Notes under the pieces: model-generated
Databases searched by the model: none
The model's input: only the letters and a program-made list of their open reading frames with translations
What the model was told of the DNA's origin: nothing
In this document: piece after piece, positions 7,894-61,904 of the stretch
How the letters are laid out: each line of letters opens with the position of its first letter
How positions within the stretch are numbered: position 1 is the first letter of the stretch
Origin: Mucor racemosus
Taxonomy: Eukaryota > Mucoromycota > Mucoromycetes > Mucorales > Mucoraceae
Reading direction: 5' to 3'
Length of the DNA stretch: 64,000 nucleotides
Assembly: GCA_027405735.1 (NCBI GenBank)
Contig: JAPEHQ010000021.1
Coordinates: 558,001-622,000 of the forward strand
Program-made: the position numbers and the translations under genes

Positions 7894-10477
7894 TACAGCG
7901 CATTAACCCCCCGTAAACTAAACAAAATAGGCAATAACTGTTATGATAGAAACATGCATTTTCTACCAGAAAATCCGGCTGTCATATCATAGATTCATTA
8001 AAAAATTGCAAAAGCGAGCCCGTAGAGCAACGCCGTAATTGAGCATAGCAAGATTGAATGACTACTGTAAATCTCTTCTACCATGGTATGTATCTAAGTT
8101 TTAAATGAAAAAGCGGTTTTTTAAAACTTTTCTTATATTTACCCACGTACAGTCTGAAAATTTAGATTTTGCAGCGGACATTTTAGGGGCTCATTTTATC
8201 CTTACCAACACTCATGATTTTGATCAAAAAACAGAAAAATTAAATTTTGACACCAAAATCAACGTTTAAATGTACTACATTATGAGAGAAAATTGTAGCT
8301 ATAGATGATACGCATTTTATAAAAGCTTAATATTAAATGTTAAGTAATAAAACTTTGTACTTTTGGCCCAAAAACGGTTTTTTGGTTAAAATATTTTCAT
8401 GTAATATTTTGCAATAAAAATGTTGGTTATTTTTTATTGAGCAAATAGAGCGCTAAATTTTCTATATGTACATATTTTTTGTTTTTATAATTGGTAGTAT
8501 AATTCACGCTAGATTTGCAAAATCAGAAAAAAAAAAATTAAAAAATGTCAAAATTGATGATCTGGACAAGAATAATTTTTGAAATTAATATTCTGCTTAT
8601 AAGCTTTGTAAGTCTTAAAAATAAGAGATTTTATAATACTGGAGAACTTTTCCAAGAATTTAAGATGCTGTACTCACTTGATTCAAGCTTGTTACTGTAA
8701 AACGTTATACATGTTAATATTGCGTGGTAGTTCATTGGTTGATAATATAGTATTACTTTATGATTATTGCGCTAGAGGTGATCTACATTGAGTTTTAGTC
8801 TTACCTCTCCAGAATCATAAACATAAACATGGCCATCAATCACTGGAACCTATTGCCACCTTTTTATCCTTTTTGTCCCAAACCAATTTATCCAATGCTT
8901 TACAAGGACCAACTTAAGTACTTACAAATGGTTCCTCATCAGTATTTGCATTCAAATTCCATGAATCAAATTAACTAGTTCCATCTACAGAAGTAGTATC
9001 AAACGTATCATTAGCCCGTCTTATTATGATAAATGTCGATCTAAAATTAGAAACATCCCATTGTCATTGTTATGAGTTATGAAGAGCTTGCTTTTTAATA
9101 ATACAGCAATTGAATATAAAACAAGATAATACTAATAACATATGGTGAGTATTTAACATCTAAGTAAGTTTGATAAAGTATGCTTTTAAACCCTTTTAAA
9201 ACCCTGAAGCAAATACAACATCTTGGTCCTGTAGTTTCTATGCATCAAAATGTTGCGATTTTCACCACTACACAATGAATGCACCTTTTATCAATCTTGG
9301 CGGCATCGATGTACACACTACGGCCGACCTGTGCTGCACAAGATAATTTCGTTGTGTCCAGGTGGGCTACACACTACAGTCCGAGCTGTTGTTGTGTCCA
9401 CTGAATATAGTTAAAAAAATAACAATGTCCACATGGGCACAACAAAAGAAATTGCACACGAGCACAACGCTAAGCCTGTATGTGCATAACCTTCATTCCA
9501 TGTATGCATAATAGTAGAATTGCCCATACGCATATCATTATCCCTATTTGTGCATAATAATAAAATCTGACCATGAGTATAATGAGCTGATCGTATGGGC
9601 ACAAATTGGTTTGTACATGAGCATCGTGCCGTTCTCAAAATTCCATTGCATTTTTTTACTAGAATGGGTTTTTAAATTACATTTGATTTTATTAATATAT
9701 ACTGTAGACAACACAATTCAATACGTTGTTGGTGTAGAGCAACACATGCAAGAGCCAACATATTTACGATTATTATCATCATTTGTAAATATGATTATAG
9801 CTATTACAATGTTTACAGCAACAGTGGTTTTTGCTCGAGCATAAACTTAAATAACACTTACTGTTTAAATTTATATGCAAGCCAAATCTAAGATTATGCA
9901 ATAGATGTTACTTTATCATACATAAAATTTAAACAAATTAATCTTCTTTAAACTTACTATTTTAGTTTAGTACAATTATCAGCTGTAAAAAAATTTGTTT
10001 TCAAGTATAGCTACAATCAAAACGATGATAATTAGTCAAGATATTAGATTATTCTTTTTTTTGTTTTTATACCATTTAAAGTTTTATTATTTTTCTGGAA
10101 CATTTTGTGGGTTTGTAACCAGTTCTAGCTTTTGATTGGGTAGATATAAATACCATTACCTTTGATTTGATCTGGTAATCAAGAAATAGGTCCAACAACA
10201 CAGTAGTAAATAATGATAATTGGTCCTAATAAAATGCGGTTAAATGAAATTATCAGTATCTCATATAACGACTGCTAACTATATTAATATTAGTCCCTTA
10301 TGTCAGCATGCGTATTCAGATAAAAGAAAATAATACCAGCTTGATAGTCTGATATGCCTTATCAAACGGTGAATAATATCCTTGGAATATGAAAACAAAA
10401 AAAGAGAAACAACACACGTAGAAAAGAATTTTCAAAGCTTTACATTATTTAACGCAATTAAAACCCTGCATTACAGG
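7894..10477. mobile_element. 2.6-kb composite insertion (segments A then B) carrying a gene fragment
   Basis: Inserted inside an R copy. The 10-mer TTTATAACAT occurs at 7884-7893 and again at 10478-10487, while uninterrupted R copies have it once, so it reads as a target duplication of 8-10 bp. Segment A is about 7894-9262 and B about 9316-10468, joined by a ~53-bp link. Both segments recur at 59404-61904 in the opposite order (B then A). The termini begin TACAGCGCATTAAC and end GCATTACAGG; I see no convincing terminal inverted repeat. B contains an array of degenerate units around TGGGCACAA and ATGAGCATAAT (9420-9630). There is no recognisable transposase. A hAT- or Mutator-type 8-10 bp duplication is possible, so the class is left open. 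Confidence 0.75.
8805..9007 (-). pseudogene. Dynein intermediate chain gene fragment (WD40 exon) captured in the composite element
   Basis: On the minus strand the residues read SVDGTS then WNLNANTDEEPFV, then KALDKLVWDKKDKKVAIG and, after a 4-nt shift, DGHVYVYDSGE followed by a GTAAGA splice donor at 8804. This matches the WD40 region typical of cytoplasmic dynein intermediate chains (SVDGT.Q..LWNLN...E.P, then IAVG...G.+.+YD.GE). In-frame stops and the frameshift make it non-functional. The retained donor points to capture from genomic DNA, not from mRNA. The same fragment is at 61525-61722. Confidence 0.75.
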
Positions 10478-11371
10478 TTTATAACATATTTCAGTATGAA
10501 AAAATTCTGAACACTTATTTTTTTTTCATTTTTTTGACATTTTTGCAATAGATTTCAAAATATTGGTTGAATTGAGCAACACTTTTTTACATTCATGTCA
10601 TCAAGCTCGTTGAGCTCTCTTGAGTCCAATTTAGTTTTTTTAAAAATATTGATTTTTCGTGGAGATATCCTCAAAAATGTGTACAAAGAGATACCCTCAT
10701 TTCGTACCTCAATTTTTCCCTTATATACCCTCATCCCAAATTCTGAATTTCAAAAAATTTGCCCAAAAATCTCTTTTTCTCTACGCAGAATGCAGCTAAA
10801 AGGCTAAATAATAGCTCGATCAATAGATAATTTTGCTATGCATTATCTCCATTGTTTAAATTTAAAATATGCTTATAAAAAGTATTCTATATTGTCAAAA
10901 AACCTTCGAAATTTCAATTGCATTTTGCGCAATATTTTACGTGAAACATTTTTTTAAATTTTATTTAGATGGATACAGAAGTTAAAACTGTACAAAAACC
11001 ATTTAATACACTAGGTCTACTTACTTTGCAGTTCCTGAGCATTTAAGCAATTTTGTTTTTTGAATCATTTTTCATTCATTTTTTTTAAATTAATTTTGGA
11101 AGCCCGTTAATATAAGATTAAGCTGTATTATGAACTATTATTTTGATTATCTCGACAAAAAATTAATATTTTTCGCCCAAAGAAAAAATACAAAGTAGCT
11201 TAGAGTTGGATCTATCTTGTGAATATAAAAATTAAACCGGAATTTAAGTGATCAAATATTTGCATTTTCCGAGAGATATCAATGGCCTATATAGCAAAGG
11301 TACATCTTCATTAAGAATTTTACGTTATTTGGCTCAATATTGGGCAAAAACATTTGAAAACATTTAGAAAC
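10478..11371 (+). repeat. Dispersed repeat R, copy 1, right part
   Basis: Continues R after the composite insertion, from TTTATAACAT through GTGGAGATATCCTCAAAAAT and the AT-rich 3' half, and ends at the Tc1 element. Colinear with 32325-32912, 44480-45240 and, inverted, 14490-15440. Confidence 0.85.
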
Positions 11372-11373
11372 TA

Positions 11374-13009
11374 CAGTGAGTCGCAAAACCCTTTCAATGA
11401 TTTGGAAATTTGAATGAAAATAACCATAACTTTCTCAGTTTCAATCGGAGATACACTAAATTTCTATTTTAAGTAATTCGAACGTTTTTAAATTATTTTC
11501 AAAAAGTCCGATCTAATTAATTAAAGTTCCGCAAAAACTATGCAAGTTTAAAAAAAGGCACATCATTGAAAGGGTTTTGCACGCACAGGCTTAAAATTAC
11601 AATTTTGTAACCCCTAACTTGTACATTAACGCTAAATATCTTATAAAACAGAGAAATATGCGGAAAATATATGAGATGTTTTTCAACTTTTACCCTGCCT
11701 TTTTTACTAGTAGTTTCAAGCAAAATCATCAAGATAAAAACTGTATCGGATGCCAAACGTAATGACGTTATCTCTCTGTTAAATTCAGGTCATACCGTAT
11801 CGGAAATTGCTCGTCATGTAGCTGTTAGTCAAGCCACAGTATGTAGTATTGGAAAAAAGGCCTGTCCTGACCGAGAAAAACGTAAAGGAGACCGACCATC
11901 TAAGCTGACTACTGCGGATATGAGATATTGTGTCCATAAAATCACTAAAGGTGGCTTGGATAATGCGGTACAAGCCAAAAAAGAGCTTCATCGTAATGTA
12001 CACGTTAATGGCAGTGCGAATACTGTACTAGGGCTCTTCGGGATAATGGTTTAGGCGCATTACCTAAGATAAAAAAGCCAGAAATTAGTGATGAAAATGC
12101 AAAGGATCGCCTCCGCTGATGTAAAAACAGAATTGATTGGACTTTGGATGACTGAAAGCGTGTTATATCTACTGATGAGGCTAGAATTAATTGTTTTAAC
12201 TCGGATGATCGAATTTGGTGCTGGAAAAGAGACAGCAAGGAGATAAAACCTAAGCATACCAAAAAACAAGAAAAAATGGAGATGGTCGTATCATGATTTG
12301 GAGCTCTATTTCTTGGTCTGGTGTCGTTTGGTTGTCCAAGGTCGAAGGTAATATGAACTCCAGCCTATACAGAACTATTATTGATGATGATTTGGAGAAA
12401 TCCATTGACGACATGTGTCAAAAATTGAAGTTGCGTCGTAATTAGGTTATCCTTCAACAAGACAACGATTCTAAGCACACCTCTAATTTAATGAAAGAAG
12501 ACTTCAAAACAAAAAATATGAAGTAATGTCATGGCCAGCACAATTTCCAGACCTTAATCCCATTGAAAACATGTGGAGGTTATTGAAAATTCGCCTAAAC
12601 GAATACGATACATCCCCAAAAGGGATGAATGATATTTGGGACAGAACTCAAGAGATTTGGTATGACAACATAACAGTTGGGGAATATCAAAAAGTTATTT
12701 CGAGTATGCCTCATCGTGTAAAAGCTTGTATTAAAGCAAAAGGTTACGGTATTGATTATTGACTGCATTTAAATAAGCTTCAATTTTTTTTTGATAATGC
12801 GTGCAAAACCCTTTCAATGATGTACCTTTTTTTAAACTTGCATAGTTTTTGCGGAACTTTAATTAATTAGATCGGACTTTTTGAAAATAATTTAGAAACG
12901 TTTGAATTATTTAAAATAAAAATTTAGTGTATCTCCGATTGAAACTGAGAAAGTTATGGTTATTTTCATTCAAATTTCCAAATCATTGAAAGGGTTTTGC
13001 GACTCACTG
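11374..13009 (+). mobile_element. Tc1/mariner-superfamily element, copy 1 (1636 bp, long TIRs)
   Basis: Begins CAGTGAGTCGCAAAACCC and ends with its inverse, flanked by TA at 11372-11373 and 13010-13011. Terminal inverted repeats are long, roughly 215 bp (to ~11590 and from ~12790), and each contains CCTTTCAATGAT motifs at both the outer and inner edge. The internal gene is a broken transposase. A second copy of identical length lies at 41842-43477 in the opposite orientation with different flanks. Confidence 0.95.
11671..12762 (+). pseudogene. Broken Tc1-type transposase, copy 1
   Basis: Three pieces of one DDE transposase are visible. A helix-turn-helix N-terminus (NSGHTVSEIARHVAVSQATV, then GRPS-like GDRPSKL) is intact to about 12020. 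After a frameshift near 12020-12030 come STDEARINCFNSDDRIWCW, carrying the first catalytic Asp, and VILQQDNDSKHT with the second. A last open piece from 12526 carries SWPAQFPDLNPIENMWRLLK with the final Glu. In-frame stops near 12118, 12148 and 12442 and frame changes separate them, so no full protein can be made. The same lesions occur in the second copy. Confidence 0.9.
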
Positions 13010-13011
13010 TA

Positions 13012-14485
13012 GTAGGTGGAATACAACACGTACGTTAGGAGTTTTTTATATCCAGTATCAAAAACTGGGCGCTTGATTTCTATGATCTAACCAACAAATT
13101 AATGGGATGCTAAAATTATATCGCTGAATACTGTTGCAGCTGTAATACAGTATAAACATTGAAACTTGCAACACATTTGATTTTATAAAAATTTTCAAAG
13201 AATACCTGAAACAATTGATACAAAATAGGTTGAGCACGTACGATTTTTCGCTTTTTTTCCATTTCCACAGAAACTCAAGGAGGCTAAACCCTTTGCAATT
13301 CTGTTGATCAACATTAGAAGTACTTGCCATTGTAACAGGAGGTCATTTGGATTTATATTCGTTGAGAACTGCTGGTGAGTGATATATCAGAAGTTTACCC
13401 AGATGTAGAAATCCAGGAACAACTATTGAAATCCAACATGGCATGACATTTAGTAACTCATACTAAATGTCATACATAGTCCACTGGTAATAACAGCGAC
13501 TATCAGGAAATTCAGGAACACGTGGCAACAATGAAACATAAGCAATTCTACATCTTATCCAAATGATACAATCACAGATTCCCAATTCCACAAATTCCAT
13601 TGTATATGCTCAATGCCCGGCAATTCATTAATAATATTAATAATCATATAAATTCTAGAAAACATATAAATATGAAGCATCAATGAATTAATAAAATGTA
13701 TCTTTTAGTAGAGTATTTTTATATTAGTATCCTTTGATATAACAGTGCGCTTACTGACTTAGTAGGCTTAAATTGCAGGTAATAACCAGCTTTGTAATGA
13801 TTCACATTACATGATGTTTCAACAATAATTGCATGAATTAGTTTCAGTTGTATAATCCATATAAATATGTAAATGTTAAATCAGATATTGAACATTAGTG
13901 AAAATATCTGTTTCCTTCCTTTGTTAATAATTTTAATCAAATAAACTTATTATCACAACCTCAACCGATCTATTACTTAATACTACTTGTCAAATGTTAA
14001 TTACACTTAATACATAGTAAGTATTGACCAAAGTAATAGTCAACTACAGTTAGTAACATCAACAACGTCCACCTTTTGTACTTCTTTCTTAATAGACTCA
14101 ACCTATTACAAGATCATAGTACTTATTACAAGCTTGTTGTTCAAGCTTGCCGAATGTACAATGATTTATGATGGAAGCTGGTATCCGAGATAGTTGTATT
14201 ACCTATTCATATCTATATTCATGAAGAGTGCCAGATTATTACTTGGATTGGTATTCATAGATATTGTATTTAAATTGTTTTCAATAAAAGTGCGCAGCAG
14301 TAAGTTATAGGTGCACATTGGCGATGGTTTCTTCAACACAAAGTAGGTTATGAATGTTGCTCTTGGATATCGGCGCGTCCAAGATGCGCCCCTACTTTTA
14401 TGTAAAGTTGGAAGTCATTAGAAGAATGGAAATTCGCTGAGATAGGAGGGTTTTTGTTATTGATTTTTTATAATTGTAAAAAGTA
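13012..14485 (+). repeat. Dispersed repeat T, copy 1, with U element inside
   Basis: Colinear with 40480-41838: both contain the CAAAAACTGGGCGCTTGATT-like start, the ORF-bearing segment on the minus strand, and a shared 3' part beginning TTCAATAAAAGTGC. A T-like fragment is inverted at 46019-46460 and a short one lies at 58075-58150. On the minus strand from 13330 a reading frame starts MASTSNVDQQNCKGFSLLEF; related peptides occur in the other copies. The function is not recognised. Confidence 0.7.
13793..14132 (+). repeat. MITE-like element U, copy 1
   Basis: About 340 bp that recurs inverted at about 45239-45600. The ends read GTAATGATTCACATTAC and, inverted, TGTAATAAGTACTATGATC, giving short imperfect terminal inverted repeats (TGTAATRA). 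No coding capacity. It is probably a non-autonomous DNA transposon; the class is unassigned. Confidence 0.5.
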
Positions 14486-14489
14486 GGTT

Positions 14490-17759: not shown

Positions 17760-17814
17760 TACTATATGTATCAACATTGAATAAACACCTATACATTGTA
17801 TTTTTACACACATA

Positions 17815-17859
17815 TAATATATATATATATATATATATTTGTATTTTCGAGATATAGAA

Positions 17860-17898
<39 letters not shown>

Positions 17899-31211: not shown

Positions 31212-31959
31212 GATTCGATCAAAGAAAACACGTTTAAATAAAAATCCTTTTCCTTGTTGCTTCCCGTTTTGAAAAAAGTTTTAAAAACCGCGTTTCCCAT
31301 CCGTGTCACTTTGAATTTAAATTGCCCTCTGTTGTAAAGTGAAAAACATTAAGCAATGTAAATACAAATAGAATATAGTAAAAAGTCGAACCAGTTACAT
31401 GAGGAATTTAAAAACTAATGCATGGTCGAAGTCTTTGAACCCGTATCTAAATCTTTGAGAAATATTCTTGAATAACCGAGGATATTCATGTATCTATTGG
31501 TATATCATAATAATGAGAAATTTTTGAATTCCTAATGTGCATTGAATCTTTCAACAATAATGCATCCATGTATGAACAAAAACTTAGAAGAAAGGTGCTT
31601 TAGTTAAACTTTTGACAGTTATCTTTTATGGTTTGGTTGTTAAATGATAAAAATGCAGCAAGAAAAACATAAACCAAAGTTTTTTCAACAATTTGACATA
31701 TTTTGCAAGTCGTGAGGATAATTTCAGTGATCTTCATATTAGGCAATTAGGAAAGCAAGGCTGGCTGAGCATACAATTAAAAGTTGTTGTAATTTATGGA
31801 GCTACTGTTGTACATATGTCAAAAAAAAAATTTCTTGTGCATTATCACCACTGTTTTTTGTTTTTAAAACGGCAGCATATCTTCTTTTCTATAGCTAACA
31901 TTATACTAGACAGTTTTTGGGATATATCTTAGACACTGCTAAACGGATATGAATTGGCC
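31212..31959. other. Intergenic, no gene recognised
   Basis: RNase H2B 5' flank then AT-rich sequence leading into R copy 3. A 79-codon open frame at 31693-31932 has no domain and no counterpart elsewhere in the window. Confidence 0.45.
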
Positions 31960-32912
31960 GCATCATGCTAACTATTCCTAGATTTATTTTATATCTCACG
32001 AAAGACTCAAAAACACGTAAAATGCACTGCTTTTTTTTAAGAGACTAGGTACCATATTTCATCCTTGCCCAACTTTTTTTTTAACTGAATAACACCAAGA
32101 AAAAATTATATGTCAATGTACCTGAAATGTTCAGCTTTAATTCCCAAATAAGTATCCAGATATATCCTGTTTTTTGCAGTTGGTATTAATTTTTCAGTGC
32201 TAATGTTTCAGATTTTTACGCGTATTTCACTGCTAAAGAATTGAAAACTTTGAGGTTTCATATCTCTAGAAAAAATTAAGCTATACTAACACTTTCTAAT
32301 AATAAAACTAACTTGTTTTAAGACGCTTTATAACATGTTTTAGTATGAAAAAATTCTGAACACTTATTTTTTTTTCATTTTTTTGACATTTTTGCAATAG
32401 ATTTCAAAATATTGGTTGAATTGAGCAACGCTTTTTTTACATTCATGTCATCAAGCTCGTTGAGCTCTCTTAGGTCCAATTTTGTTTTTTTAAAAATATT
32501 AATTTTTCGTGGAGATATCCTCAAAAATGTGTACAAAGAGATACCCTCATTTCTTACCTCAATTTTTCCCTTATATACCCTCATCCCAAATTCTGAATTA
32601 CAAAAAAATTTGCACAAAAATCTCGTTTTCTCTACGAAGAATGCAGCTAAAAGGTTAAATAATAGCTCGATCAATAGATAATTTTGCTATGCATTATCTC
32701 CATTGTTTAAATTTAAAATATGCTTATAAAAAGTATTCTGTATCGTCAAAAAACTTTCAAAATTTCAATTGCATTTTGCGCAAAATTTTACGTGAAACAT
32801 TTTTTTAAATTTTATTTAGATGGATGCAGAAGTTAAAACTGTACAAAAACCATTTAATACACTAGGTCTACTTACTTTGCAGTTCATGAACATTTAAACA
32901 ATCTTGTTTTTT
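31960..32912 (+). repeat. Dispersed repeat R, copy 3, left part (interrupted by the LINE)
   Basis: Colinear with 44090-45045. Ends at AATCTTGTTTTTT (32900-32912), where the LINE is inserted; the R sequence continues at 38564. Confidence 0.88.
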
Positions 32913-33134
32913 TTTTTTTTTTTTTTTAAATTGTTTTATTAATTGCTCCGTGTAAGACAAGAGTGGGACTTCCTATCCAAGAGGCGGGCGCAATGTAGAA
33001 GTAATAATTGAGAAAATAAATGAAAGATGAAAAGACAAGGTAATAAGGAACAATAGATATAAGATAAAAATAATAAAGAGAACTAATATATCAAGAATGA
33101 GAAAAAAGAAAAAAGGATGACCAGGAGAGTTGAA

Positions 33135-37046: not shown

Positions 37047-37048
37047 AT

Positions 37049-38557
37049 TTACTGATGAGTAGAAGGAAGGGCACCGGACGTGTCAGGTGAAGAAGGAATT
37101 TCCTTGTCAGTAGTAATATTAGAAGAGGCAGTAATCAAAGTATTAGAATTAGGAGGACCCGATAGTGGTAGACGACTAGAACTGATATCAATAGAATCAG
37201 AGGTTCGAGCAACCTTGGCATTTAAAGGAGAAGGTTCTAACAAAGGAGAACGAGGTAGCTTCGAGGAAGCCTCTTTCATGCTAACATCTGGCTTATTATC
37301 ATTGGAGCCATTGGAAGTAATGTCAGAATTGGGGGCCTCAGCAATAGAATTTACAATAGCAGGGGAAGTAGCTTCTTCCATAAGATGATCGGCATCAACT
37401 GTCTTACTCTTGGTGGGCTCATCACCTTGAATAATTGGCTGGCGAGTCGAAGATCCATCTTGAGGAGAAGAGGACTTCTTGGGATCAGAGGAACCTTTGG
37501 GAGTTTTACGTCCTTTGGTTGAAGTAGTAGGCGAAACGGCTCTAACTTTTCCGGGAGCAGAAGCAATAGAATCATTGCGAGGACAAACTTGGAAAACATG
37601 ACCAGTTTGATTGCAATGATAGCAACGGATCCATTTTTTGTAATCAGGACAGTCTGCTCTGCAATGTGCAGTACTTTGGCAATTGCGGCAAAAGTCAGGC
37701 ATTTTATCCCATTGCAGGAGGATTTTGCGTTGTTCAACGTCCTTGTCATTCCAGACGATTACTCTGGCCAAAGGTTCTAAATGTTTAAGACCACCACAAG
37801 GAGAGTCCTTTCCATGATTGAAAGGACATTGGTTATCTTCCAGGATGGGATTCAGGGTTAAATTAATGGTGGCATATCCTTCACCATTGAAAATGCCATC
37901 AGTTTTAGAGATACCCAAATCCAGGACATCACCAAAACAGGCGAGACGTTTTTCCATTTCCGATTTCAATAGCAAAGCGGGGAGGAAGGGAAGATTCTCT
38001 AAGGTCAATCTTACAATGGAAGCATCAGCTGGGTACGACTTAAAACCCTTAAGAAAGGTGCCATCATCTAAAGTGATGCCAGATTCAAGAATTGTTTTAC
38101 ATCCTTCCGATGTAGGAAGCCACAAGGTTTCCAAAAAGTCATGACCAAGGTAATTTCGGGTCTGCTTACGATACCCAAGAAATTCCTCATAAAAATCAGA
38201 CTTTGCAGCTGATTCATTAAATTTTAACAGAGCTTTATTTAACAAAGAGCGATCTTTAACAGTAGATAAATCAATAAGTACTGAATCTTGTTCCATTCCC
38301 TTGATAAAAGGACGAACAACCTCGAAAGGAGCAGGAGAAGCGCTGCCATTTAACACCTGCTGACTCGATTCTTGTTCTGTTACTGAACGTTGAACCAGGG
38401 TAGGCTTGAAGGAATAGTTTTGTTTCTTCTTATTCCTAGCCCCATGAGAGACAACTTGAGTCCATTCCCGAGAAATAGCTTGGGAGGACTGAGAGGATGG
38501 TCCTGAACTACGAGAGTTCGGATTGTTATTCTGCTGGTTACTGCGAGTTTCGACCAT
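37049..38557 (-). CDS. LINE ORF1: gag-like RNA-binding protein with CCHC knuckles
   Basis: 502 residues starting MVETRSNQQNNNPNSR. The N-terminus is Ser/Asn/Gln-rich. An RRM-like middle (VRLTLENLPFLPALLLKSEM) is followed by two zinc knuckles, CRNCQSTAHCRADC and CYHCNQTGHVFQVC, both of C-x2-C-x4-H-x4-C form. The C-terminal ~170 residues are basic and Ser/Pro-rich. It probably coats the element RNA. The stop TAA (37051-37049) is two bases before the ORF2 ATG. Confidence 0.93.
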   Translation of the reverse strand: MVETRSNQQNNNPNSRSSGPSSQSSQAISREWTQVVSHGARNKKKQNYSFKPTLVQRSVTEQESSQQVLNGSASPAPFEVVRPFIKGMEQDSVLIDLSTVKDRSLLNKALLKFNESAAKSDFYEEFLGYRKQTRNYLGHDFLETLWLPTSEGCKTILESGITLDDGTFLKGFKSYPADASIVRLTLENLPFLPALLLKSEMEKRLACFGDVLDLGISKTDGIFNGEGYATINLTLNPILEDNQCPFNHGKDSPCGGLKHLEPLARVIVWNDKDVEQRKILLQWDKMPDFCRNCQSTAHCRADCPDYKKWIRCYHCNQTGHVFQVCPRNDSIASAPGKVRAVSPTTSTKGRKTPKGSSDPKKSSSPQDGSSTRQPIIQGDEPTKSKTVDADHLMEEATSPAIVNSIAEAPNSDITSNGSNDNKPDVSMKEASSKLPRSPLLEPSPLNAKVARTSDSIDISSSRLPLSGPPNSNTLITASSNITTDKEIPSSPDTSGALPSTHQ

Positions 38558-38563
38558 GGAAGG

Positions 38564-38765
38564 AATCTTGTTTTTTGAATCATTTTCTGATCGATTTCAC
38601 AGATCGATTTTGGAACTCAGTTATCCTAGGCTCTAAGCTGTAATTAGGGTTATTATTTTGATTATCTCGATAAAAAATCAATATTTTTCGCTGAAACAAA
38701 AAACGCGGAATAGTTTTCAGTTAGATCTATCTTATGAATACAAAAAATTAATGCATCAATTTACA
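38564..38765 (+). repeat. Dispersed repeat R, copy 3, right fragment
   Basis: Restarts with the duplicated AATCTTGTTTTTT and continues GAATCATTTT...GATTATCTCGATAAAAAAT, as in R at 45049-45240. It ends where repeat S sequence and the deleted Tc1 element begin. Confidence 0.8.
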
Positions 38766-41838: not shown

Positions 41839-41841
41839 CTA

Positions 41842-43477
41842 CAGTGAGTCGCAAAACCCTTTCAATGATTTGGAAATTTGAATGAAAATAACCATAACTT
41901 TCTCAGTTTCAATCGGAGATACACTAAATTTCTATTTTAAATAATTCAAACGTTTTTAAATTATTTTCAAAAAGTCCGATCTAATTAATTAAAGTTCCGC
42001 AAAAACTATGCAAGTTTAAAAAAAGGCACATCATTGAAAGGGTTTTGCACGCATTATCAAAAAAAAATTGAAGCTTATTTAAATGCAGTCAATAATCAAT
42101 ACCGTAACCTTTTGCTTTAATACAAGCTTTTACACGATGAGGCATACTCGAAATAACTTTTTGATATTCCCCAACTGTTATGTTGTCATACCAAATCTCT
42201 TGAGTTCTGTCCCAAATATCATTCATCCCTTTTGGGGATGTATCGTATTCGTTTAGGCGAATTTTCAATAACCTCCACATGTTTTCAATGGGATTAAGGT
42301 CTGGAAATTGCGCTGGCCATGACATTCCTTCATATTTTTTGTTTTGAAGTCTTCTTTCATTAAATTAGAGGTGTGCTTAGAATCGTTGTCTTGTTGAAGG
42401 ATAACCTAATTACGACGCAACTTCAATTTTTGACACATGTCGTCAATGGATTTTTCCAAATCATCATCAATAATAGTTCTGTATAGGCTGGAGTTCATAT
42501 TACCTTCGACCTTGGACAACCAAACGACACCAGACCAAGAAATAGAGCTCCAAATCATGATACGACCATCTCCATTTTTTCTTGTTTTTTGGTATGCTTA
42601 GGTTTTATCTTCTTGCTGTCTCTTTTCCAGCACCAAATTCGATCATCCGAGTTAAAACAATTAATTCTAGCCTCATCAGTAGATATAACACGCTTTCAGT
42701 CATCCAAAGTCCAATCAATTCTGTTTTTACATCAGCGGAGGCGATCCTTTGCATTTTCATCACTAATTTCTGGCTTTTTTATCTTAGGTAATGCGCCTAA
42801 ACCATTATCCCGAAGAGCCCTAGTACAGTATTCGCACTGCCATTAACGTGTACATTACGATGAAGCTCTTTTTTGGCTTGTACCGCATTATCCAAGCCAC
42901 CTTTAGTGATTTTATGGACACAATATCTCATATCCGCAGTAGTCAGCTTAGATGGTCGGTCTCCTTTACGTTTTTCTCGGTCAGGACAGGCCTTTTTTCC
43001 AATACTACATACTGTGGCTTGACTAACAGCTACATGACGAGCAATTTCCGATACGGTATGACCTGAATTTAACAGAGAGATAACGTCATTACGTTTGGCA
43101 TCCGATACAGTTTTTATCTTGATGATTTTGCTTGAAACTACTAGTAAAAAAGGCAGGGTAAAAGTTGAAAAACATCTCATATATTTTCCGCATATTTCTC
43201 TGTTTTATAAGATATTTAGCGTTAATGTACAAGTTAGGGGTTACAAAATTGTAATTTTAAGCCTGTGCGTGCAAAACCCTTTCAATGATGTGCCTTTTTT
43301 TAAACTTGCATAGTTTTTGCGGAACTTTAATTAATTAGATCGGACTTTTTGAAAATAATTTAAAAACGTTTGAATTATTTAAAATAGAAATTTAGTGTAT
43401 CTCCGATTGAAACTGAGAAAGTTATGGTTATTTTCATTCAAATTTCCAAATCATTGAAAGGGTTTTGCGACTCACTG
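41842..43477 (-). mobile_element. Tc1/mariner-superfamily element, copy 2 (1636 bp)
   Basis: Same length and nearly the same sequence as copy 1, inverted, with TA at 41840-41841 and 43478-43479. The flanks differ from those of copy 1 (repeat T on the left, repeat S on the right), so it is an independent insertion. A few single-base differences from copy 1 are visible, e.g. in the terminal repeats (AATAATTCAAACG here, AGTAATTCGAACG in copy 1). Confidence 0.95.
42089..43180 (-). pseudogene. Broken Tc1-type transposase, copy 2
   Basis: Carries the same three pieces and the same stops and frameshift as copy 1: the helix-turn-helix piece (43180-42797), the middle Asp segments in broken frames, and the last piece with LNPIENMW (42325-42089). 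Identical lesions in two separate insertions mean the element was already dead when it moved. Confidence 0.9.
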
Positions 43478-43479
43478 TA

Positions 43480-44084
43480 GTATCATACATTATCACCTTC
43501 TACAGTATCAATACATCTTACAATCTATTGACTACGACATGTATTGAAGTGCAAGTCTTGATATCGGATATAAAAAACTCCTAGCGTATCAAGTTTAATC
43601 CAGTAATTACCAAGAACGCTTTGACCTCAATTATGACACCATATTATTTCATCCCAGCAGTTAACCAATCAAGTAGTTATCAAATCAACATCCAAGCATA
43701 TTTAGCGCAGCATTGAAACAAGACAACTGACAAGCTCTGCAAGAACGGTTAAATTATGATTGATCCATTTCAATCCATAGATTACTATCGAACAGATTTA
43801 ATGGTTCAATAGTCCCTTAAATTACATCTCAGGATCTCAATGTCAAATCAATATAAAAGGCCATACTTTTACATCTAAATAAACGATATCTTGTTTTTAT
43901 TATACAGTTGAAGAACTGATTAATTACTCATTCTTTTATAATTGTATTCTTTTTTTAAGTAATATTTATCAATCCTGAAAATATACGACAGTACGTACTA
44001 AGTTTTTTATCCAGCAATTACCAGGAATGCTTGGACCTCAATTGTACCACCATATTATTTCATCCCAGCGGTTAATTATACAGA
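43480..44084 (-). repeat. Dispersed repeat S, copy 2 (inverted) plus a short extra fragment
   Basis: Matches 58155-58680 on the opposite strand, including GATATCGGATATAAAAAACT and the CATATTATTTCATCCCAGC segment. A second partial S segment (about 44005-44080) follows before R copy 4. Confidence 0.75.
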
Positions 44085-45820
44085 CACGAACTGGTCGCAT
44101 TATGCTACCTATCATTCCTAAATTTATTTCATATCTCACGAAAGACTCAAAAACGCGTAAAATTCACTGCTTTTTCCTTGAAAACTGGGTCTCACTTTTC
44201 ATCCCTGCTCTACTTTTTTTTCACTAAGTAACACCAAGAAAAAATTATATGTCAATGTACCTGAGATATTCAGCTTTAATTCCCAAACAAGTATCCGGAA
44301 ATATCCTATTTTTTGCAGTTGGTATTAATTTTTCAATGCTAATGTTTCAGATTTTTATGCGTATTTCACTGCTAAAGGATTGAAAACTTTGAGGCTCCAT
44401 ATCTCCGAAAAAAAATTAAGTTATACTAACACTTTCTAATAGCAAAACTTACTTGTTTTAAGACACTTTATAACATATTTCAGTATAAAAAAATTCTGAA
44501 CACTTTTATTTTTTTTTCATTTTTTTGACATTTTTGCAGTAGATTTCAAAATATTCGTTAAATTAAAGCAACGCTTTTTTTACATTCATATCATCAAGCT
44601 CGTTGAGCTCTCTTAGACCCAATTTAGTTTCTTTGAAAATATTGATTTTTCGTGGAGATATCCTCAAAAATGTGTACAAAGAGATACTCTCATTTCTAAC
44701 CTCAATTTTTCCCTTATATACCCTCATCCCAAATTCTGAATTTCAAAAAAAATTTGGATGAAAATCTTGTTTTCTCTACGAAAAATGCAGCTAAAAGGTT
44801 AAGTAATAGCTCGATCAATAGATAATTTTGCTATGCATTATCTCCATTATTTAAATTTAAAATATGCTTATAAAAAGTATTCTATATTGTCAAAAAACCT
44901 TCAAAATTTCAATTGCATTTTGCGTAAAATTTTACGTGAAACATTTTTTTAAATTTTATTTGGATGGATGCAGAATTCAAAACTGTACAAAAACCATTTA
45001 ATACACTAGGTATACTTACTTTGCAGTTCATGAGCATTTAAAAAATCTTGTTTTTTGAATCATTTTTCATTCATTTTTTGAAATTAATTTTGGAAGCCCG
45101 TTACTATAGGGTTTAAGCTGTGATGAGAGCTATTATTTTGATTATCTCGACGAAAAATCAATATTTTTTGTCCAAACAAAAAATACAGAGTAGCTTAGAT
45201 TTGGATTTATCATGTGAATACAAAAAATCAAGTCTCAATTTGGTGTAATAAGTACTATGATCTTATAATAGATTGAGTCTATTAAGAAAGAAGTACTAGA
45301 GATGGACGTTTTTGGTGTTACTAATTGCAGTTGACTATTATTTTGGTCAATACTTACTATGTATTAAGTGTGATTAATATGTGACAAGTAGTATTAAGTA
45401 ATAGATCGTTTATGGGTATGTTTGATAAGTTTATTCGATTAAAATTATTAATGAAGAAGGAAGAAAACAGATATTTTCACTAATGTTCAATATCTAATTT
45501 ACCATTTACATATTTATATGAATTATGTAACTGAAACTAATTCATGCAATTATTGTTGAAACACCATGTAATGTGAATCATTACATTATTTAGGTGCTCA
45601 ATTTTTAATAATTAATTGTAGGTCAAACTTGGTCAATTTTGGTCAATGTCTAGCCAGTGCGCTTATATTCTGATATTAATATTTCTATTTTCCGAGAGAT
45701 ATCAATAATGGTCTATGGAGTAAATTTAAATGTTCTTTAAAGATTTTACATGATTTGATTTAATATAGTGTAGGGCAAAAATATTCGAAAGCCTTTTAAA
45801 AACTATCTGAAACCTAATAC
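44085..45820 (+). repeat. Dispersed repeat R, copy 4 (fullest copy, with U inserted)
   Basis: Starts GAACTGGTCGCATTATGC and runs through all blocks seen in other copies to about AAACTATCTGAAACC. Element U (45239-45600) interrupts it between CTCAATTT and AGGTGCTCAATTTTT; copy 2 is continuous at that point. Confidence 0.85.
45239..45600 (-). repeat. MITE-like element U, copy 2 (inverted)
   Basis: Starts TGTAATAAGTACTATGATC and ends GTGAATCATTACA, matching 13793-14132 in the other orientation. It is inserted in R. Flanks CAATTTGG and ATTTAGG may be a decayed target duplication. Confidence 0.6.
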
Positions 45821-55030: not shown

Positions 55031-55095
55031 GATCGATTTCTTTAATGAATGGTCCTAACAATTTTAGGATCCCTTTATTCTATATATCTATTAAT

Positions 55096-56644: not shown

Positions 56645-57002
56645 CTTCTTGTTCAATCGTGTTAAACTAGAAGATTGATGTGAAAGAAAGAAACCGTGGA
56701 AAAATACTGAAATCAAAAGGTCAAAATGGTCAAAATCCGTGGGAAAATGATCCTTGAATATTTTTATGTGCAGCAACTAAAACAGTAATATTGTCCATCT
56801 AGTACGACATGCTATACGCAAGTTCTTCAACTTTGAATATACAGTTTCCTTATAATGCTCGTAAAACTGAAATGAATGCCAATCAAGAAAATGTGCTTTT
56901 TCTCTGATTAATTTTTCTTGCTCTTGTTACTAAACAATTGACAATTCTTTCGTGATATTAAACATAGTGCCTTTATTCCATAAAAAATGAACAAAGAAAA
57001 AA

Positions 57003-57440
57003 TAATAAAAGTGTTCAGAATTTTTTCATACTGAAATATGTTATAAAGTGGCTTAAAACAAGTAAGTTTCATTATTAGAAAGTGTTAGTAAGCTTAATTT
57101 TTTTTTTTTGGAGATATGGAGCCTCGAAGTTTTCAATCCTTTAGCAGTGAAATACGCATAAAAATCTGAAACATTAACACTGAAAAATTAATACCAATTG
57201 CAAAAAATAAGATATCTTTGGACACTTATTTGGGAATTAAAGCTGAGCATCTCAGGTACATTGACATATAATTTTTTCTTGGTGTTATTTAGTGAAAAAA
57301 AAAGTAGAGTAGGGATGAAAAGTGGGACCCAGTTTTCAAGGAAAAAGCAGTGAATTTTACGCGTTTTTGAGTCTTTCGTGAGATATGAAATAAATTTAGG
57401 AATGATAGGTAGCATAATGGGGCCAGTTTATGTCTGTATA
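57003..57440 (-). repeat. Dispersed repeat R, copy 5 (left block only)
   Basis: On the minus strand it starts ATAAACTGGCCCCATTATGCTACC and stops at AGTGTTCAGAA near 57010. It corresponds to the first ~430 bp of R at 44085. Confidence 0.85.
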
Positions 57441-57528
57441 ATTATGCATTTCCTAAAATAGTGAAAAAAAACTGAAAAATACATGTTCACATGTATGAGG
57501 ATTAAAATTGTAGACCAACAAAAGAGAG

Positions 57529-57603
57529 TGACAAGCTTAACGGGTAGCGCATGCTCTACAAATTGAGGGCGGCGACACACATATTCGTGAGTTCAAACCC
57601 TCC
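57529..57603 (+). repeat. tRNA-like segment (degenerate tRNA or SINE head)
   Basis: AACGGGTAGCGCATGCTCTA resembles a tRNA D-arm, and GAGTTCAAACCC about 50 bp later resembles a Pol III B box (GTTCRANNC). The anticodon arm and acceptor stem do not pair well, so it is not a working tRNA. No second copy is seen in this window. Confidence 0.4.
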
Positions 57604-57735
57604 AAAGGGGAAGCCCTTTGATATTAGGATATGAATTTTAAAAGAGAATCTCCGATGCCCTTGCTTCTCATCGAATATGATCCTCCTTTTTTTCTTAATT
57701 AGTAATTTTTGCATATGTATAGCTAAGTATAAAAG

Positions 57736-57862
57736 ACGAGCCGAGCCTAGGACGAGCTTGACCAAAGCTCGCCACAACGAGCCGAGCTTTGTATCACTCG
57801 AGCTCGTCTAACTTTAACGAGCCTTGAGAAAAGCTCGGCTGCATAAAAAAGGCTCGGCTCGT
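57736..57862. repeat. 127-bp foldback rich in AGCTCG/CGAGCC units
   Basis: The ends ACGAGCCGAGCC (57736-57747) and GGCTCGGCTCGT (57851-57862) are perfect 12-bp inverted repeats. Inside are several GAGCTTG, AAGCTCG, GAGCCGAGC and CGAGCTCG units in both orientations. It is GC-rich against a very AT-rich background. Confidence 0.85.
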
Positions 57863-58074
57863 TTAATATCATTATGTATAGCAAATTTTTTCCTTTCTCA
57901 TTAATGCATATGATATGCATGCTAGTAAATTTAGCTGGCAAAACCCGGCTCGACACCAATACTACCAGCATCCATGGGTTATTGTACGTTCAGCCAGTTT
58001 GAGCAACAGGTTGGTTACCTGCCACTTACACCTACTAAGATCAGCAAGCCCATCATCAGGTCTTCTCAACGAAT

Positions 58075-58680
58075 ATGAGTCCAAATGACCTCCCATTGCA
58101 ATGGCAAGTACTTCTAGCGCTGATCCACAGAATTGCAAAAGGTTTAGCCTTGTCGTATATTTTCAGGTTTGATGAATAATACTTAAAAAAGAATACAATT
58201 AAAAGAGAATTAGTAATGAATCAGTTATTCAATTGTATAATAAAAATAAGATATCGTTTATTTAGATATAAAAGTACGGCCTTTTATATTGATGTGACAT
58301 TGAGATTCTGAGGTGTAATTTAAGGGACTATTGAACCATTATTAGATCTGTTTAATAGTAATCTATGGATTGATATGGACCAATCATAATTTAACTGTTC
58401 TTGCAGAGCTTGTGAGTTGCTTTGTTTCAATGCTGTGCTAATTATACTTGGATGTTGATTTGATAGCTATTAATTGATTAACCGTTTGGATGAAATAATA
58501 TGGTGTCATAATTGAGGTCCAAGCGTTCTTGGTAATTACTGGATTAAACTTAGTACGCTAGGAGTTCTTATATCCGATATCAAGACTTTGCACTTCAATA
58601 CATGTCGTAGTCAATAGGTTGTAAGATGTATTGGTACTGTAGAAGGTGATACATATGGCACTTGGTGGCATGACAACATA
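58075..58680 (+). repeat. T fragment joined to repeat S, copy 3 (unoccupied site)
   Basis: 58075-58150 is a short T piece, including a frame starting MASTSSADPQNCKRFS at 58101. Repeat S then runs from TTGTCGTATATTTTCAGG to about 58680. Here the site that carries the deleted Tc1 at 38777 is empty. Confidence 0.75.
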
Positions 58681-58920
58681 ATATATGATTCATATTTTTG
58701 CCAATGGTCACCTGTCCAAGAAAAAAAGCCGAACAATCTCTGGAAGCGGCCATCTAATGCTATTTCCAGGCTTTAAATTTCTAAAAAAAATCACCGGACA
58801 TCCCGGACGCTGTTGTTTAAATATTCCAAGCAGCTATACGATGCAGGTATCGAAATTTCATACAAAAATTAAGGTTCGACTGTATTGCTATTAATTATTC
58901 AAAGACTTATTTTAAGTAAA

Positions 58921-59269
58921 TGTTGCATCCACAGATCTGGGTGCATTCCTTGGTTAAGATTACGACACAGTTTGATATGTTAAGTTCTACATTGCTGTGT
59001 ATTATGTTAAGAAGCTCCGTTTATACAGGAATGTGGAACTAGTGTGTGTCACCTAGACTTGATTGGATATATATATATATATAAATAGACTCATTTGAGA
59101 CTAATCATATAATTAGAGAATGTGAATATAAAAGAAGATGTTTCGATCTTATAATAAAGTTCTTTAGTTTTAGTGTGCTCTTTCATTTTATAACAGTTTT
59201 CCTTTATTTTTATTAAATAATTTAGTACATATTTTAGCTTTGAGATTGATATAATCTCCTGGCGTAACA
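58921..59269. mobile_element. Solo LTR (349 bp)
   Basis: Starts TGTTGC and ends GTAACA, the TG...CA inverted ends typical of LTRs. It is flanked by a perfect 5-bp duplication GTAAA (58916-58920 and 59270-59274). Inside are a TATA stretch with TATAAATAG at about 59079-59087 and an AATAAAG poly(A) signal near 59153. No internal retrotransposon region remains on either side. The superfamily is unknown; orientation is probably plus from the TATA and AATAAA order. Confidence 0.82.
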
Positions 59270-59403
59270 GTAAAGCATAAATACAACCTACAACAACATT
59301 ACTAGCCTAATCACGGATTTAACTTGAAAAATATAAAATGATATAACCGGATTCAAAAAAAGTCCATAAAATCACAAATTTAAAGGATTTATATATAAAA
59401 GCA

Positions 59404-61904
59404 CTACGGCTGACCTGTGCTACACAAGATAATTTTGTTGTGTCCAGGTGGGCTGCACGCTATAGCCTTATGAGTTGTTGCGCCCACTGAATAATGGCTA
59501 AAAAGATAACAAGATGTATATGGGTACAACAAAAGAAACTGCACACGAGCATAACGAAAAGCCTGTATGCGTAGAGTTATAAATTCTGTCCGTGTGCATG
59601 ACATTAATTCCATGTGGGCATAATAGTAGAGTTTCCCATAAGCGTATCATTATTCCTCCTATTTGTACATAACGATAAAATCTGACCATGAGCATAATGA
59701 GCTGATTGTATGGGCACAAATTGCTTTGTACATGAGCATCGTGCCGTTCTCAAAATTCCATTGCATTTTTTTTTACTGGAATGGGGTTTTAAATTACATT
59801 TGCTTTTATGAAAATAATATAGATTATAGACAATAATACAATTCAATGCGTTGTTGATGTAGAGATGTAGAGCAATACATACAAGAGCCAATATATTTAC
59901 GATCATTGTTATCTTTAAATATGTTTATAGCTATAATAATGTTTACAGCAATAATGGTTTTTGCTTGAGCATAAAATTAAATAACACTTACTGCTTAAAT
60001 TTATATGTAAGCCAAATTTAAAGCTATAAATGTTACTTTATCACTCATAAAATTTAAACAAGTTAATCTTTAAACTTACTATTTTAGTTTACTATTGTCA
60101 GCTGTAAAACAATTTTCTGTCAAGTATAGCTACGATCAACACTATGGTTATTAGACAAGACATTAGGTTATTCTTTTTTTTTGTTTTTATATCATTTGAA
60201 ATTTTATCACTTTTCTGGAAGATTTCATGGGTGTGTAGCCAGTTCTAGCTTTTTATTGAGTTGATATAAATATTATTACCGTCGATTTGATCTGGTAATC
60301 AAGAAATACGTTCAACAATACAGTAGTAAATAATAATATTTAATCTTAAAATGCGTTTAAATAAAAATATCAGATTTAATATAGACTGCTACCTATATTA
60401 AAGACATTAGTCCCTTATGTTAGCATGCGTATTCAGATACAAGAAAAGAATACCAGCTTGATAATAGTCTGATATGCCTTATCAAACGGTGAATGTATCC
60501 TTGGATATGAAACGAAAAGAGAGAAACAACACACGTAGAAAAGGATTTAAGGATTTACATTATTTAGCGCATTTAAAATCCTGCTAAATTGCACATTTCA
60601 ATCAATGTAAAAGCAATCTTACAGCGCATGCACCATAAACTAAACAAAATTATAGGCAATATCTGTTATTATAGAAACATACATTTTTCTACCAGAAGAA
60701 CCATCTGTCATATTATACATTCATTAAAACATTGCAAAAGCGAGCCCGTAGAGCGACGCCGTAATTGAGTATAGAAAGATTGAACAGCTAAGTCTCGTAT
60801 ACTATGGTATATATCAAAGTTTTAAATAAAAATGCGTATTTTTTCAAACTTTTCTTATATTTAACCACGTACAGTCTGAAAATTCAGTTTTTGTAGCGGA
60901 CATTTTCGGGACTCATTTTACCCTTACCAACACTCATGATTTTGATCAAAAAAAAGAAAAATCAAATTTTGATACCAAAATCAACATTTAAATATACTAC
61001 ATTATGAGAGAAAATTGTAGCCGTAGCTAATACGCAATTTATAAAAGCTTAATATTAAATATTAAGTAATGAAACTTTGCACTTTTCCCCCAAAAACGGT
61101 TTTTTGATTAAAGGATTTTCATGTAATATTTTACAATAAAAATGTTTATTGTTTTTTATTGAGCAAATAGAGCGCTAAATTCTGTATATGTGTATATTTT
61201 TTGTTTTTATAGTTGGTAGTGGAATCAACTCTAGATTTGCAAAATCAGAAAAAAAAATTAAAAAATGTCAAAATTGATGATCTGGACAAAAATAATTTTC
61301 TAAATTAATATTCCGCTTATAAGCCTTGTAAGTCCTAAAAATAAGAGATTTTATAATACTCCAGAACTTTTTCAAGAATTTACAATGCTGTACCCACTTG
61401 ATTCATGCTTATTTCTATAAACCTTTATACATGTTAATATTATATGGTAGTTTATTTGATGATAATATAGTCTTATTTGATAATTATTGCGCTAGAGGTA
61501 ATTTTCATTGAGTTTTAGTCTTACCTCTCCAATATCATAAACGTAAACGTGGTCATCATTGGAACCTATTGCTGCCTTTTTACCCTCTTTTTCCTAAGCC
61601 AATTTATTCGCTCCGTTATTAGAACGAACTTAAGTACTTACTACGAATGGTTCCGCGGTATTTGCATTCAAATTCCATAAATTAAATTGACTGGTTCCAT
61701 CTACAGTAGTATCAAACGTATCACCAGCCCTCAGCCCGCCTTATGATACATGTCACTATAACATCAGAAACATCCCATTATTGTCATTGTTATTATAAGC
61801 TATGAAAAGCTTGATTTTTAATAAGTATGCTTTTAAACCCTTTTAAAAAGTTTGAGGCTAATGCAACATTTTGGTCTTGTAATCTCTATTCATCAAAATG
61901 TTGC
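59404..61904. mobile_element. Second copy of the composite element, circularly permuted (B then A)
   Basis: 59404-60581 matches segment B (9316-10468) and about 60622-61904 matches segment A (7894-9262), in the same orientation but swapped order. The two are joined by a ~36-bp spacer (CTAAATTGCACATTTCAATC and on). Many single-base changes and small indels separate the copies, so the event is old. No clear target duplication was found at the outer ends. Confidence 0.8.
61525..61722 (-). pseudogene. Dynein intermediate chain gene fragment, second copy
   Basis: On the minus strand the frame reads DTFDTTVDGTSQFNLWNLNA and, after stops, EKEGKKAAIGSNDDHVYVYD then IGE with a GTAAGA donor at 61524. 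This copy keeps the frame that copy 1 has lost in the last part but shares the stop after EPFV. It supports capture before the two element copies diverged. Confidence 0.75.

What the first reader, a model, noticed from the sequence alone, without database searches (positions are those of the whole stretch)
7894..61904. Two copies of the composite are circular permutations of each other (A-B at 7.9-10.5 kb, B-A at 59.4-61.9 kb)
Both blocks keep orientation but swap order, with different short linkers at the joins (53 bp in one, 36 bp in the other). That is the pattern expected if a circular intermediate was opened at different points, or if both are cut out of a longer tandem array. Combined with gene capture this recalls Helitron-like rolling-circle elements, but the flanking duplication at copy 1 does not fit a Helitron, so the mechanism may be unusual.
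Basis: partly seen in the sequence, partly recalled or inferred. Interest (0 to 1): 0.75.

Follow-up and report, generated by a model that had tools for sequence, protein, structure and literature searches.

The report
Scrambled joints of one fungal transposon
The two swapped-order repeats are pieces of one abundant, protein-less jumping element in a Mucor-like fungus: the second copy has the normal order, and the first comes from places where the end of one copy is joined head-to-tail to the inside of another, so a circular form is possible but not needed.

Summary
Confirmed: A-B at 7894-10477 and B-A at 59402-61909, same orientation, 82-86% identical. A and B are not separate elements. B-(36 bp)-A is the usual order (20 of 20 loci fetched by an A match). 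It lies inside an open-frame-poor, high-copy element E (about 4.4 kb) with ends CACTACGGCCGA..., a pattern found 1604 times. The A-to-B joint is E's 5' end abutting the interior of another E. It occurs at 11 loci, copy 1 included, and E's ends also join other E-internal sites in both orientations. Six loci read A-B-A, so head-to-tail composites exist. Copy 1 is inserted in repeat R with a perfect 10-bp target duplication, and both its ends lie at the 36-bp linker. It is a near-exact unit of a composite, fitting either a circle opened at the linker or a piece cut from an array. It is not a Helitron, and a LINE-made copy is unlikely. Best reading: rearrangement at ends of neighbouring copies, as in maize alternative transposition, then insertion of one permuted unit. 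No circle was observed.

The parts
7894..10477 (+). Copy 1: inserted A-J1-B segment, one permuted unit
   Evidence: BLAST to copy 2 and to the empty R copies at 32327 and 44467
7884..7893 (+). Left target-site duplication TTTATAACAT
   Evidence: Read directly; the R copies at 32 kb and 44 kb show a single TTTATAACAT
10478..10487 (+). Right target-site duplication TTTATAACAT
   Evidence: As above
7894..9315 (+). Block A in copy 1, starting TACAGCGCATTAACC at the linker/A boundary
9262..9315 (+).
9308..9323 (+). Joint J1, GATGTACA|CACTACGG: A interior joined to element 5' end; same joint at 11 loci including this one
9316..10469 (+). Block B in copy 1, beginning with the element 5' terminus CACTACGGCCGACCTG
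10470..10477 (+). Last bases of copy 1 (ATTACAGG): remnant of the linker, or a short terminal repeat of the A start
59402..60584 (+). Block B in copy 2, with the element 5' terminus at 59402
60585..60618 (+). B-A linker (about 36 bp), internal to the element
60619..61909 (+). Block A in copy 2, truncated at 61909
57445..59401 (+). Repeat X directly upstream of B in copy 2; the X|B joint has 327 pattern matches genome-wide
7513..7893 (+). Repeat R, left part (target of copy 1)
10478..11255 (+). Repeat R, right part (target of copy 1)
44077..45241 (+). Uninterrupted R copy (empty site)

Best explanation
A and B are adjacent parts of one high-copy transposable element, E, with no long open frame (B-36 bp-A-C, about 4.4 kb, termini CACTACGGCCGA...TCGGCCGTAGTG). 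Its 5' end has often been joined to the inside of another copy. The joint J1 (A interior | E 5' start) made a head-to-tail composite ...B-A|B-A... that multiplied. Copy 2 is an ordinary, truncated B-A copy. Copy 1 is one permuted unit (A|B) of such a composite, set into repeat R with a 10-bp target duplication. SHOWN: the usual order, the inverted termini, the recurrent joints at the 5' terminus, the A-B-A loci, and the target duplication of copy 1. INFERRED: the joints come from a transposase acting on ends of neighbouring copies (alternative or abortive transposition, with deletion or inversion of what lies between). Copy 1 was then set in by repair of a staggered break, from a unit cut out of, or looped out of, the composite at the linker.
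For: Usual order: 20 of 20 loci fetched by an A match have B's end upstream of A across the linker; 1 of these 20 (L016) also shows A|B. Termini: L012 ends match at 19 of 20 positions, 0 of 1000 shuffles as good; the terminus pattern occurs at 837+767 sites, control 0. J1 at 11 loci, copy 1 included, among 40 scored of 1490 candidates (pattern). Further joints of E's 5' end: J2 in 2 loci, J3 in 2 loci, and L024 and L022 direct; L019, L020, L023, L028 and L047/L066 inverted (read). A-B-A in one run at L031, L036, L037, L038, L046, L047. Copy 1 belongs with some J1 composites: over the same 362 bp across J1 it is 91.7% identical to L047, 91.5% to L036 and 89.8% to L034, against 83.7-89.4% (best alignment) for the other 7 J1 loci; it groups with those three in the A tree (96/96) and shares the GGCGGC variant with L036 and L047. 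Copy 1's 10-bp target duplication. Arrays: X|B joints spaced 3059-3073 bp at C21:826-13099 (5 sites) and C15:1399198-1405337 (3 sites).
Against: No transposase was linked to E: the two PF02992 loci show only 21-25 bp matches to the reference blocks in the 3.4 kb held. A consistent target duplication for E was not found: of 9 copies read at both ends, 2 match at 2 bp (L012, L024) and 7 do not; two palindromic copies (L058/L059, L060) were left out of this count. The ends of L026 and L024 taken alone are reached by 47 and 56 of 1000 shuffles. Not all joined 5' ends are letter-perfect (L019 TATTACGG, L022 CATTATGA), as expected of old copies. A simple nested insertion should leave E's C start after the inner copy's 3' end; 0 matches, control 1 (exact pattern, limited power). 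J1 loci are not one clade in the A tree (5 changes, 10 of 34 rows; 0 of 500 shuffles as low) nor in the B tree (5 changes, 8 of 21 rows; 63 of 500 as low); one origin is not ruled out and the trees are weakly resolved. The content of the 3.07-kb arrays could not be read.
Confidence: 0.6

Rival explanations
1. Circular intermediate: a circle of one unit (A-J1-B-linker) was looped out of a head-to-tail composite, opened at the linker by a staggered break, and inserted in R. J1 would be the closing joint, or simply carried over from the composite.
For: Both ends of copy 1 lie at the 36-bp linker of a roughly 2.6-kb unit. If an array piece had independent ends, the second end would fall within about 20 bp of the same phase only about 1.5% of the time (my arithmetic, assuming uniform breaks). 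Both ends carry TACAG/CATTACAG, which can be read as terminal redundancy after loss of the linker. A swap of order with only microhomology and short indels is the published signature of circles in human segmental duplications (PMC7450558; abstract and section 7 read).
Against: The right-end CATTACAG can equally be the linker's own CATTTCAG with one change and a 10-bp deletion, which removes the redundancy. A-B-A composites already supply A-B without a circle. No TIR-to-TIR junction was found (0 matches to an exact pattern). Copy 1's right end has 1 match in the genome, itself.
Confidence: 0.3
2. Tandem duplication by ordinary homologous recombination or replication slippage made the B-A|B-A arrays, and copy 1 is a fragment of one captured at a break in R. 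Transposase is not involved in the joints.
For: A-B-A and B-A-B-A loci exist. The two A blocks within one J1 locus are 85-92% alike in their main alignments (6 loci that could be aligned), against 83-88% for copy 1 and the long A matches. J1 could derive from J3 by deletion between ATGTACA repeats.
Against: Homologous recombination does not explain why the downstream partner starts at the same element terminus with several different upstream partners and both orientations.
Confidence: 0.2
3. Retroposition: an RNA read from an A-B composite was copied into R by LINE machinery.
For: A LINE with an open reverse-transcriptase frame is in the window, inserted in another R copy with a target duplication of about 13 bp.
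Against: The LINE has a poly(A) tail and a duplication beginning AAAAAA in its own orientation; copy 1 has neither a tail nor such a site.
Confidence: 0.05
4. Helitron or another rolling-circle element.
For: Order swap and tandem units recall rolling-circle read-through.
Against: E has inverted terminal repeats, and copy 1 has a 10-bp target duplication. Neither E (CACTACGG...CCGTAGTG) nor copy 1 (TACAGCGC...CATTACAGG) has Helitron ends (recalled: TC...CTRR, no target duplication). The genome was not searched for Helitron proteins.
Confidence: 0.02
5. Assembly artefact.
For: 5 of 24 E loci tested hold inverted arms of 98.8-99.8% identity, and two palindromes run past the element into flanking DNA, which can come from fold-back reads.
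Against: J1 is at 11 loci that have diverged from each other; copy 1 differs by 8% or more from its nearest relatives and carries a clean target duplication.
Confidence: 0.03

Closest known systems
Maize Ac/Ds alternative (reversed-ends) transposition and composite insertions (PMC4270019; passages read)
   Same: Transposon termini joined to new places; deletions, inversions, permutations, tandem direct duplications and composite insertions from neighbouring copies; an excised segment ligated into a circle in the model
   Different: There it is shown genetically with an active transposase and 8-bp duplications at the termini; here old, diverged copies, no transposase linked, no consistent duplication at E ends
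Circle-derived segmental duplications, A-B to B-A order (human, PMC7450558; cattle colour-sidedness only from the search listing)
   Same: Order swap with orientation kept; short junctional changes
   Different: There donor and acceptor form one pair of single segments; here a high-copy transposon, A-B joints at 10 other loci, and a 10-bp target duplication
CACTA (CMC/EnSpm) DNA transposons (recalled)
   Same: Termini begin CACTA; short terminal inverted repeats; a repeated 11-bp motif near the 5' end
   Different: No transposase found in E, no regular 2-3 bp duplication; membership not shown
Mutator-like elements (recalled)
   Same: A 9-11 bp target duplication would fit copy 1
   Different: Copy 1 has no terminal inverted repeats

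Membership tests
CACTA (CMC) transposons | TIR beginning CACTA | tested here: met
   CACTACGGCCGA at both ends; L012 19 of 20, 0 of 1000 shuffles as good; pattern at 1604 sites, control 0. Against: L026 and L024 ends alone are reached by 47 and 56 of 1000 shuffles
CACTA (CMC) transposons | 2-3 bp target duplication | tested here: inconclusive
   2 of 9 copies read at both ends match at 2 bp (L012 TG, L024 AT); 7 do not; 2 palindromic copies left out
CACTA (CMC) transposons | Subterminal repeats | tested here: inconclusive
   3-4 motif copies in the first 350 bp of 4 of 4 copies, 8 in the whole 64-kb window; but the motif was chosen after looking and is near the 3' end in only 1 of the 3 copies that have one
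CACTA (CMC) transposons | Transposase_21 (or related) in the autonomous partner | tested here: inconclusive
   PF02992 matches 2 loci with internal stops, only 21-25 bp matches to the reference blocks in the 3.4 kb held; Plavaka/KDZ not searched
Helitron | No TIR, no target duplication, TC...CTRR ends | tested here: not met
   E has TIRs; copy 1 has a 10-bp duplication; ends differ
Circle-derived segmental duplication | Swapped block order with a closing joint at the original ends | tested here: inconclusive
   Order swap met, but the A|B joint also exists at 10 other loci, several of them A-B-A
Circle-derived segmental duplication | Circular molecule observed | not testable with these tools
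   No reads available
Alternative transposition products | Element termini at the new joints, both orientations | tested here: met
   5' end joined to E interior: direct J1, J2, J3, L024, L022, L079; inverted L019, L020, L023, L028, L047/L066, L074, L081
Alternative transposition products | Target duplication at new joints | tested here: inconclusive
   Partner ends not linked in this assembly; one search found no reciprocal joint
Mutator-like element (copy 1) | TIRs with 9-11 bp duplication | tested here: not met
   10-bp duplication present, but ends TACAGCGC... and CCTGTAAT... (reverse complement) are not inverted repeats (read)

The most novel reading that the evidence does not exclude
A TIR transposon family that regularly makes circles by joining its own 5' terminus to a site inside itself (J1-J3), and spreads these permuted circles, opened at other points and with about 10-bp target duplications, alongside the normal elements. 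Head-to-tail joints would then be a normal stage of its life cycle: 13 of the 20 5' ends sampled are preceded by the same X sequence, which in four loci lies downstream of A.
Probability: 0.1. Interest if true: 0.7.

Novelty: new variant of a known kind. Interest (0 to 1): 0.4.

Why it matters
The case shows that a swap of block order between two repeats is weak evidence for a circle when the blocks belong to one abundant transposon whose ends are often joined to its own kind. It also points to a fungal family with hundreds of terminus joints (327 X|B pattern matches), in which alternative transposition, so far studied mainly in maize to my knowledge, could be counted genome-wide.

Tried and rejected
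Two independent neighbouring elements A and B: rejected, they are contiguous parts of E in 20 of 20 loci. Helitron: rejected on ends and target duplication. LINE-made copy: disfavoured by comparison with the LINE in the same window. Copy 1 as a Mutator-like element: rejected for lack of TIRs. Simple nesting of E in E: tested by looking for the C start after an E 3' end, 0 matches, control 1. Back-to-back TIR junctions: 0 matches. A tree test for one or many origins of J1 was not decisive. I briefly suspected that copy 1's left border TACAG recurs in L016; the alignment was not convincing. One search ended in a script error after printing the end sequences; the TIR test was done.

An error of mine: the notebook entry counts L019, L023 and L027 as 100% palindromes. 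Those 100% matches are trivial (one spacer read from both sides). One search is the proper test: L023, L024, L027, L060 and L065 have inverted arms of 200 bp or more at 98.8-99.8%; L019 does not.

Dropped rows: in the flank sample I took 20 of the first 21 exact 5'-type ends listed for C1 (that list shows only the first 100 of 1604 sites). The one left out, C1:4471397, has the flank CGCTGTAAT, so it is not an X flank (13 of 21 with it). Two pairs in the sample (L072/L073 and L075/L076) have identical flanks in inverted orientation and may be arms of palindromes, which gives 11 of 18 if each pair is counted once. In the trees the duplicate palindrome arms L023_6152 (A tree) and L060_7213 (B tree) were removed before building, and L035 and L046 were added to the A tree by hand. 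Two palindromic copies were left out of the target-duplication count.
Full report
OBSERVATION. The window is C21:558001-622000 of a 53.2-Mb, 54-contig genome; the window's GC is 33%. A 2-oxoacid dehydrogenase acyltransferase fragment in it is 92% identical to a Mucor plumbeus protein, and most named entries among the 120 listed hits are Mucorales, so the host is a Mucor-like fungus. The two repeats are as described: A at 7894-9315 followed by B at 9316-10469, and B at 59402-60584 followed by A at 60619-61909, same strand, 82-86% identical. The 53-bp 'linker' of copy 1 is the native end of A; many other copies carry it. Copy 2 is truncated before it.

COPY 1 IS AN INSERTION. The flanks of copy 1 are a repeat, R, that is uninterrupted at this point at 31940-32932 and 44077-45241. 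The R copies match copy 1's flanks up to 7893 and from 10478, with TTTATAACAT on both sides. So a 2584-bp segment beginning TACAGCGCATTAACC and ending CCCTGCATTACAGG was inserted with a 10-bp target duplication. Its ends are not inverted repeats. The right end (19-base pattern, up to 2 mismatches) has one match in the genome, itself.

THE USUAL ELEMENT. Searching the genome with copy 1 gave 113 matches from the 40 scored candidates of 2805. Of 20 loci then fetched, 20 of 20 have the end of B upstream of A across the linker. A continues into a further block, C, in many of them. The start of B and the end of C carry CACTACGGCCGA... in inverted orientation; the pattern has 837+767 matches, control 0. 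In the three copies tested, L012's ends beat 1000 of 1000 shuffles, while L026's and L024's are reached by 47 and 56 of 1000. E (B-A-C, 4.4 kb in L026) has no stop-to-stop ORF over 82 aa inside it; a 7.4-kb relative, L065, has one of 100 aa at most. Six such ORFs, four from L026 and one each from L060 and L065, have no Pfam match at E 0.01. A repeated 11-bp motif lies in the first 350 bp (3-4 copies in each of 4 elements, 8 in the whole window; motif chosen after looking, and near the 3' end in only 1 of 3 copies). CACTA-like is my recalled label; the transposase test was inconclusive.

THE A-B JOINT. In copy 1, A ends ...GATGTACA and B starts CACTACGG, the element's 5' terminus. A 25-base pattern over this joint has 17 matches at up to 3 mismatches, control 0, not all of them this joint; a 121-base query finds 11 loci, copy 1 included, aligned across it among 40 scored of 1490 candidates. 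I call this J1. Other upstream partners of the same terminus are: J2 in L061 and L062; J3 in L040 and L063; C1148 in L024 and C600 in L022, direct; and B862 (L020), B329 (L028), C122 (L019), C200 (L023) and B1144 (L047/L066), inverted (letters, where L019 and L022 show a decayed terminus). The 3' end shows the same kind of joint in L017, L027 and L019. L031, L036, L037, L038, L046 and L047 read A-B-A, and two further loci, C1:2226428-2232081 and C15:205042-212358, read B-A-B-A (38 scored of 4053 candidates). J1 may derive from J3 by deletion between two ATGTACA repeats: L037 and L038 carry the T that precedes ATGTA in J3.

A LESS BIASED LOOK. Of 20 5' ends taken in list order from contig C1, 13 are preceded by the same sequence X, 3 by E interior (1 direct, 2 inverted) and 4 by DNA with no match to the references used (see Tried and rejected for the dropped row and the paired rows). 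X also lies upstream of copy 2. In L013, L018, L021 and L028 X lies downstream of A, and L018 runs A-N-X-B-A. The X|B joint has 179+148 pattern matches at up to 3 mismatches, control 0, against 223+181 for the X end alone at up to 2, control 4. X|B joints recur every 3059-3073 bp at C21:826-13099 and C15:1399198-1405337, so tandem arrays exist.

ORIGIN OF COPY 1. Over the same 362 bp across J1 copy 1 is 91.7% identical to L047, 91.5% to L036 and 89.8% to L034; against the other 7 J1 loci held the best alignments are 83.7-89.4%. Its alignments of more than 800 bp to the J1 loci are 82-88%. It shares the GGCGGC variant before J1 with L036 and L047 and groups with L034, L036 and L047 in the A tree (96/96). 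So it most likely comes from that composite lineage. The J1 loci as a whole are not one clade in either tree, and the trees do not settle whether J1 arose once. Both ends of copy 1 fall at the 36-bp linker. With a unit of about 2.6 kb, two independent breaks would agree that closely about 1.5% of the time (my arithmetic). That favours a circle opened once, or breaks favoured at the linker. The apparent 5-8 bp terminal redundancy (TACAG/CATTACAG) is ambiguous, because the linker itself holds CATTTCAG.

MECHANISM. One terminus with many partners in both orientations points to breaks made by a transposase at E ends, with the broken end joined to nearby copies, as in alternative transposition of maize Ac/Ds, where deletions, inversions, permutations, tandem duplications and composite insertions are described (PMC4270019; passages read). 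Against this: no transposase was linked to E, there is no regular target duplication at E ends (2 of 9 copies match at 2 bp), and no reciprocal joints were found. The final step for copy 1, a unit set into R with a 10-bp duplication, is inferred. The order-swap signature of circles is published for human segmental duplications (PMC7450558; abstract and section 7 read). Here it is not decisive, since A-B joints also exist in other chromosomal loci.

VERDICT. The order swap is real and has an ordinary source in a rearranged transposon family. It is neither a Helitron nor proof of a circle. Two literature searches, on Mucor transposable elements (13 papers listed) and on head-to-tail or rolling-circle arrays (4 papers listed), listed no paper whose title or abstract start describes this family; I read none of those papers.

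Noticed in passing
L060 1-7412; L058/L059; L023 1995-7675; L024 2262-7874; L027 3603-8001; L065 1119-5162: Inverted arms of 98.8-99.8% identity in 5 of 24 E loci tested, although the family differs by about 14%; at L060 and L058/L059 the 40-bp flanks outside the element are also exact reverse complements. Recent inverted duplications or fold-back assembly artefacts.
   Followed up: partly
C21:826-13126 and C15:1399198-1405364: X|B joints at a regular 3.06-3.07 kb spacing, on C21 close to the contig end: tandem arrays of part of this family.
   Followed up: partly
window 33135-38596 (-): LINE with an open endonuclease/reverse-transcriptase frame, poly(A) tail and a target duplication of about 13 bp, inserted in an R copy.
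   Followed up: partly
window 11367-13012 and 41839-43484: Two inverted copies, 99.4% identical, of a 1.65-kb element with terminal inverted repeats of about 216 bp and a short helix-turn-helix-like ORF: probably a young DNA transposon.
   Followed up: no
window 8200-8230 and 60922-60952, in block A: The 31-base string CCTTACCAACACTCATGATTTTGATCAAAAA is exact in 20 of 45 A copies that span it in the held loci, although copies differ by about 14%: possible constraint in an element without long frames.
   Followed up: partly
L065 3006-3740 and relatives in L009, L010, L013, L014, L018, L025: A roughly 735-bp repeat, 90-97% alike, found in or beside several E copies.
   Followed up: no
C11:984907 and C1:1433883 (L048, L049): The only two Transposase_21 matches, with the same stop counts and scores of 49.2 and 49.1 bits; probably one duplicated dead transposase.
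   Followed up: no
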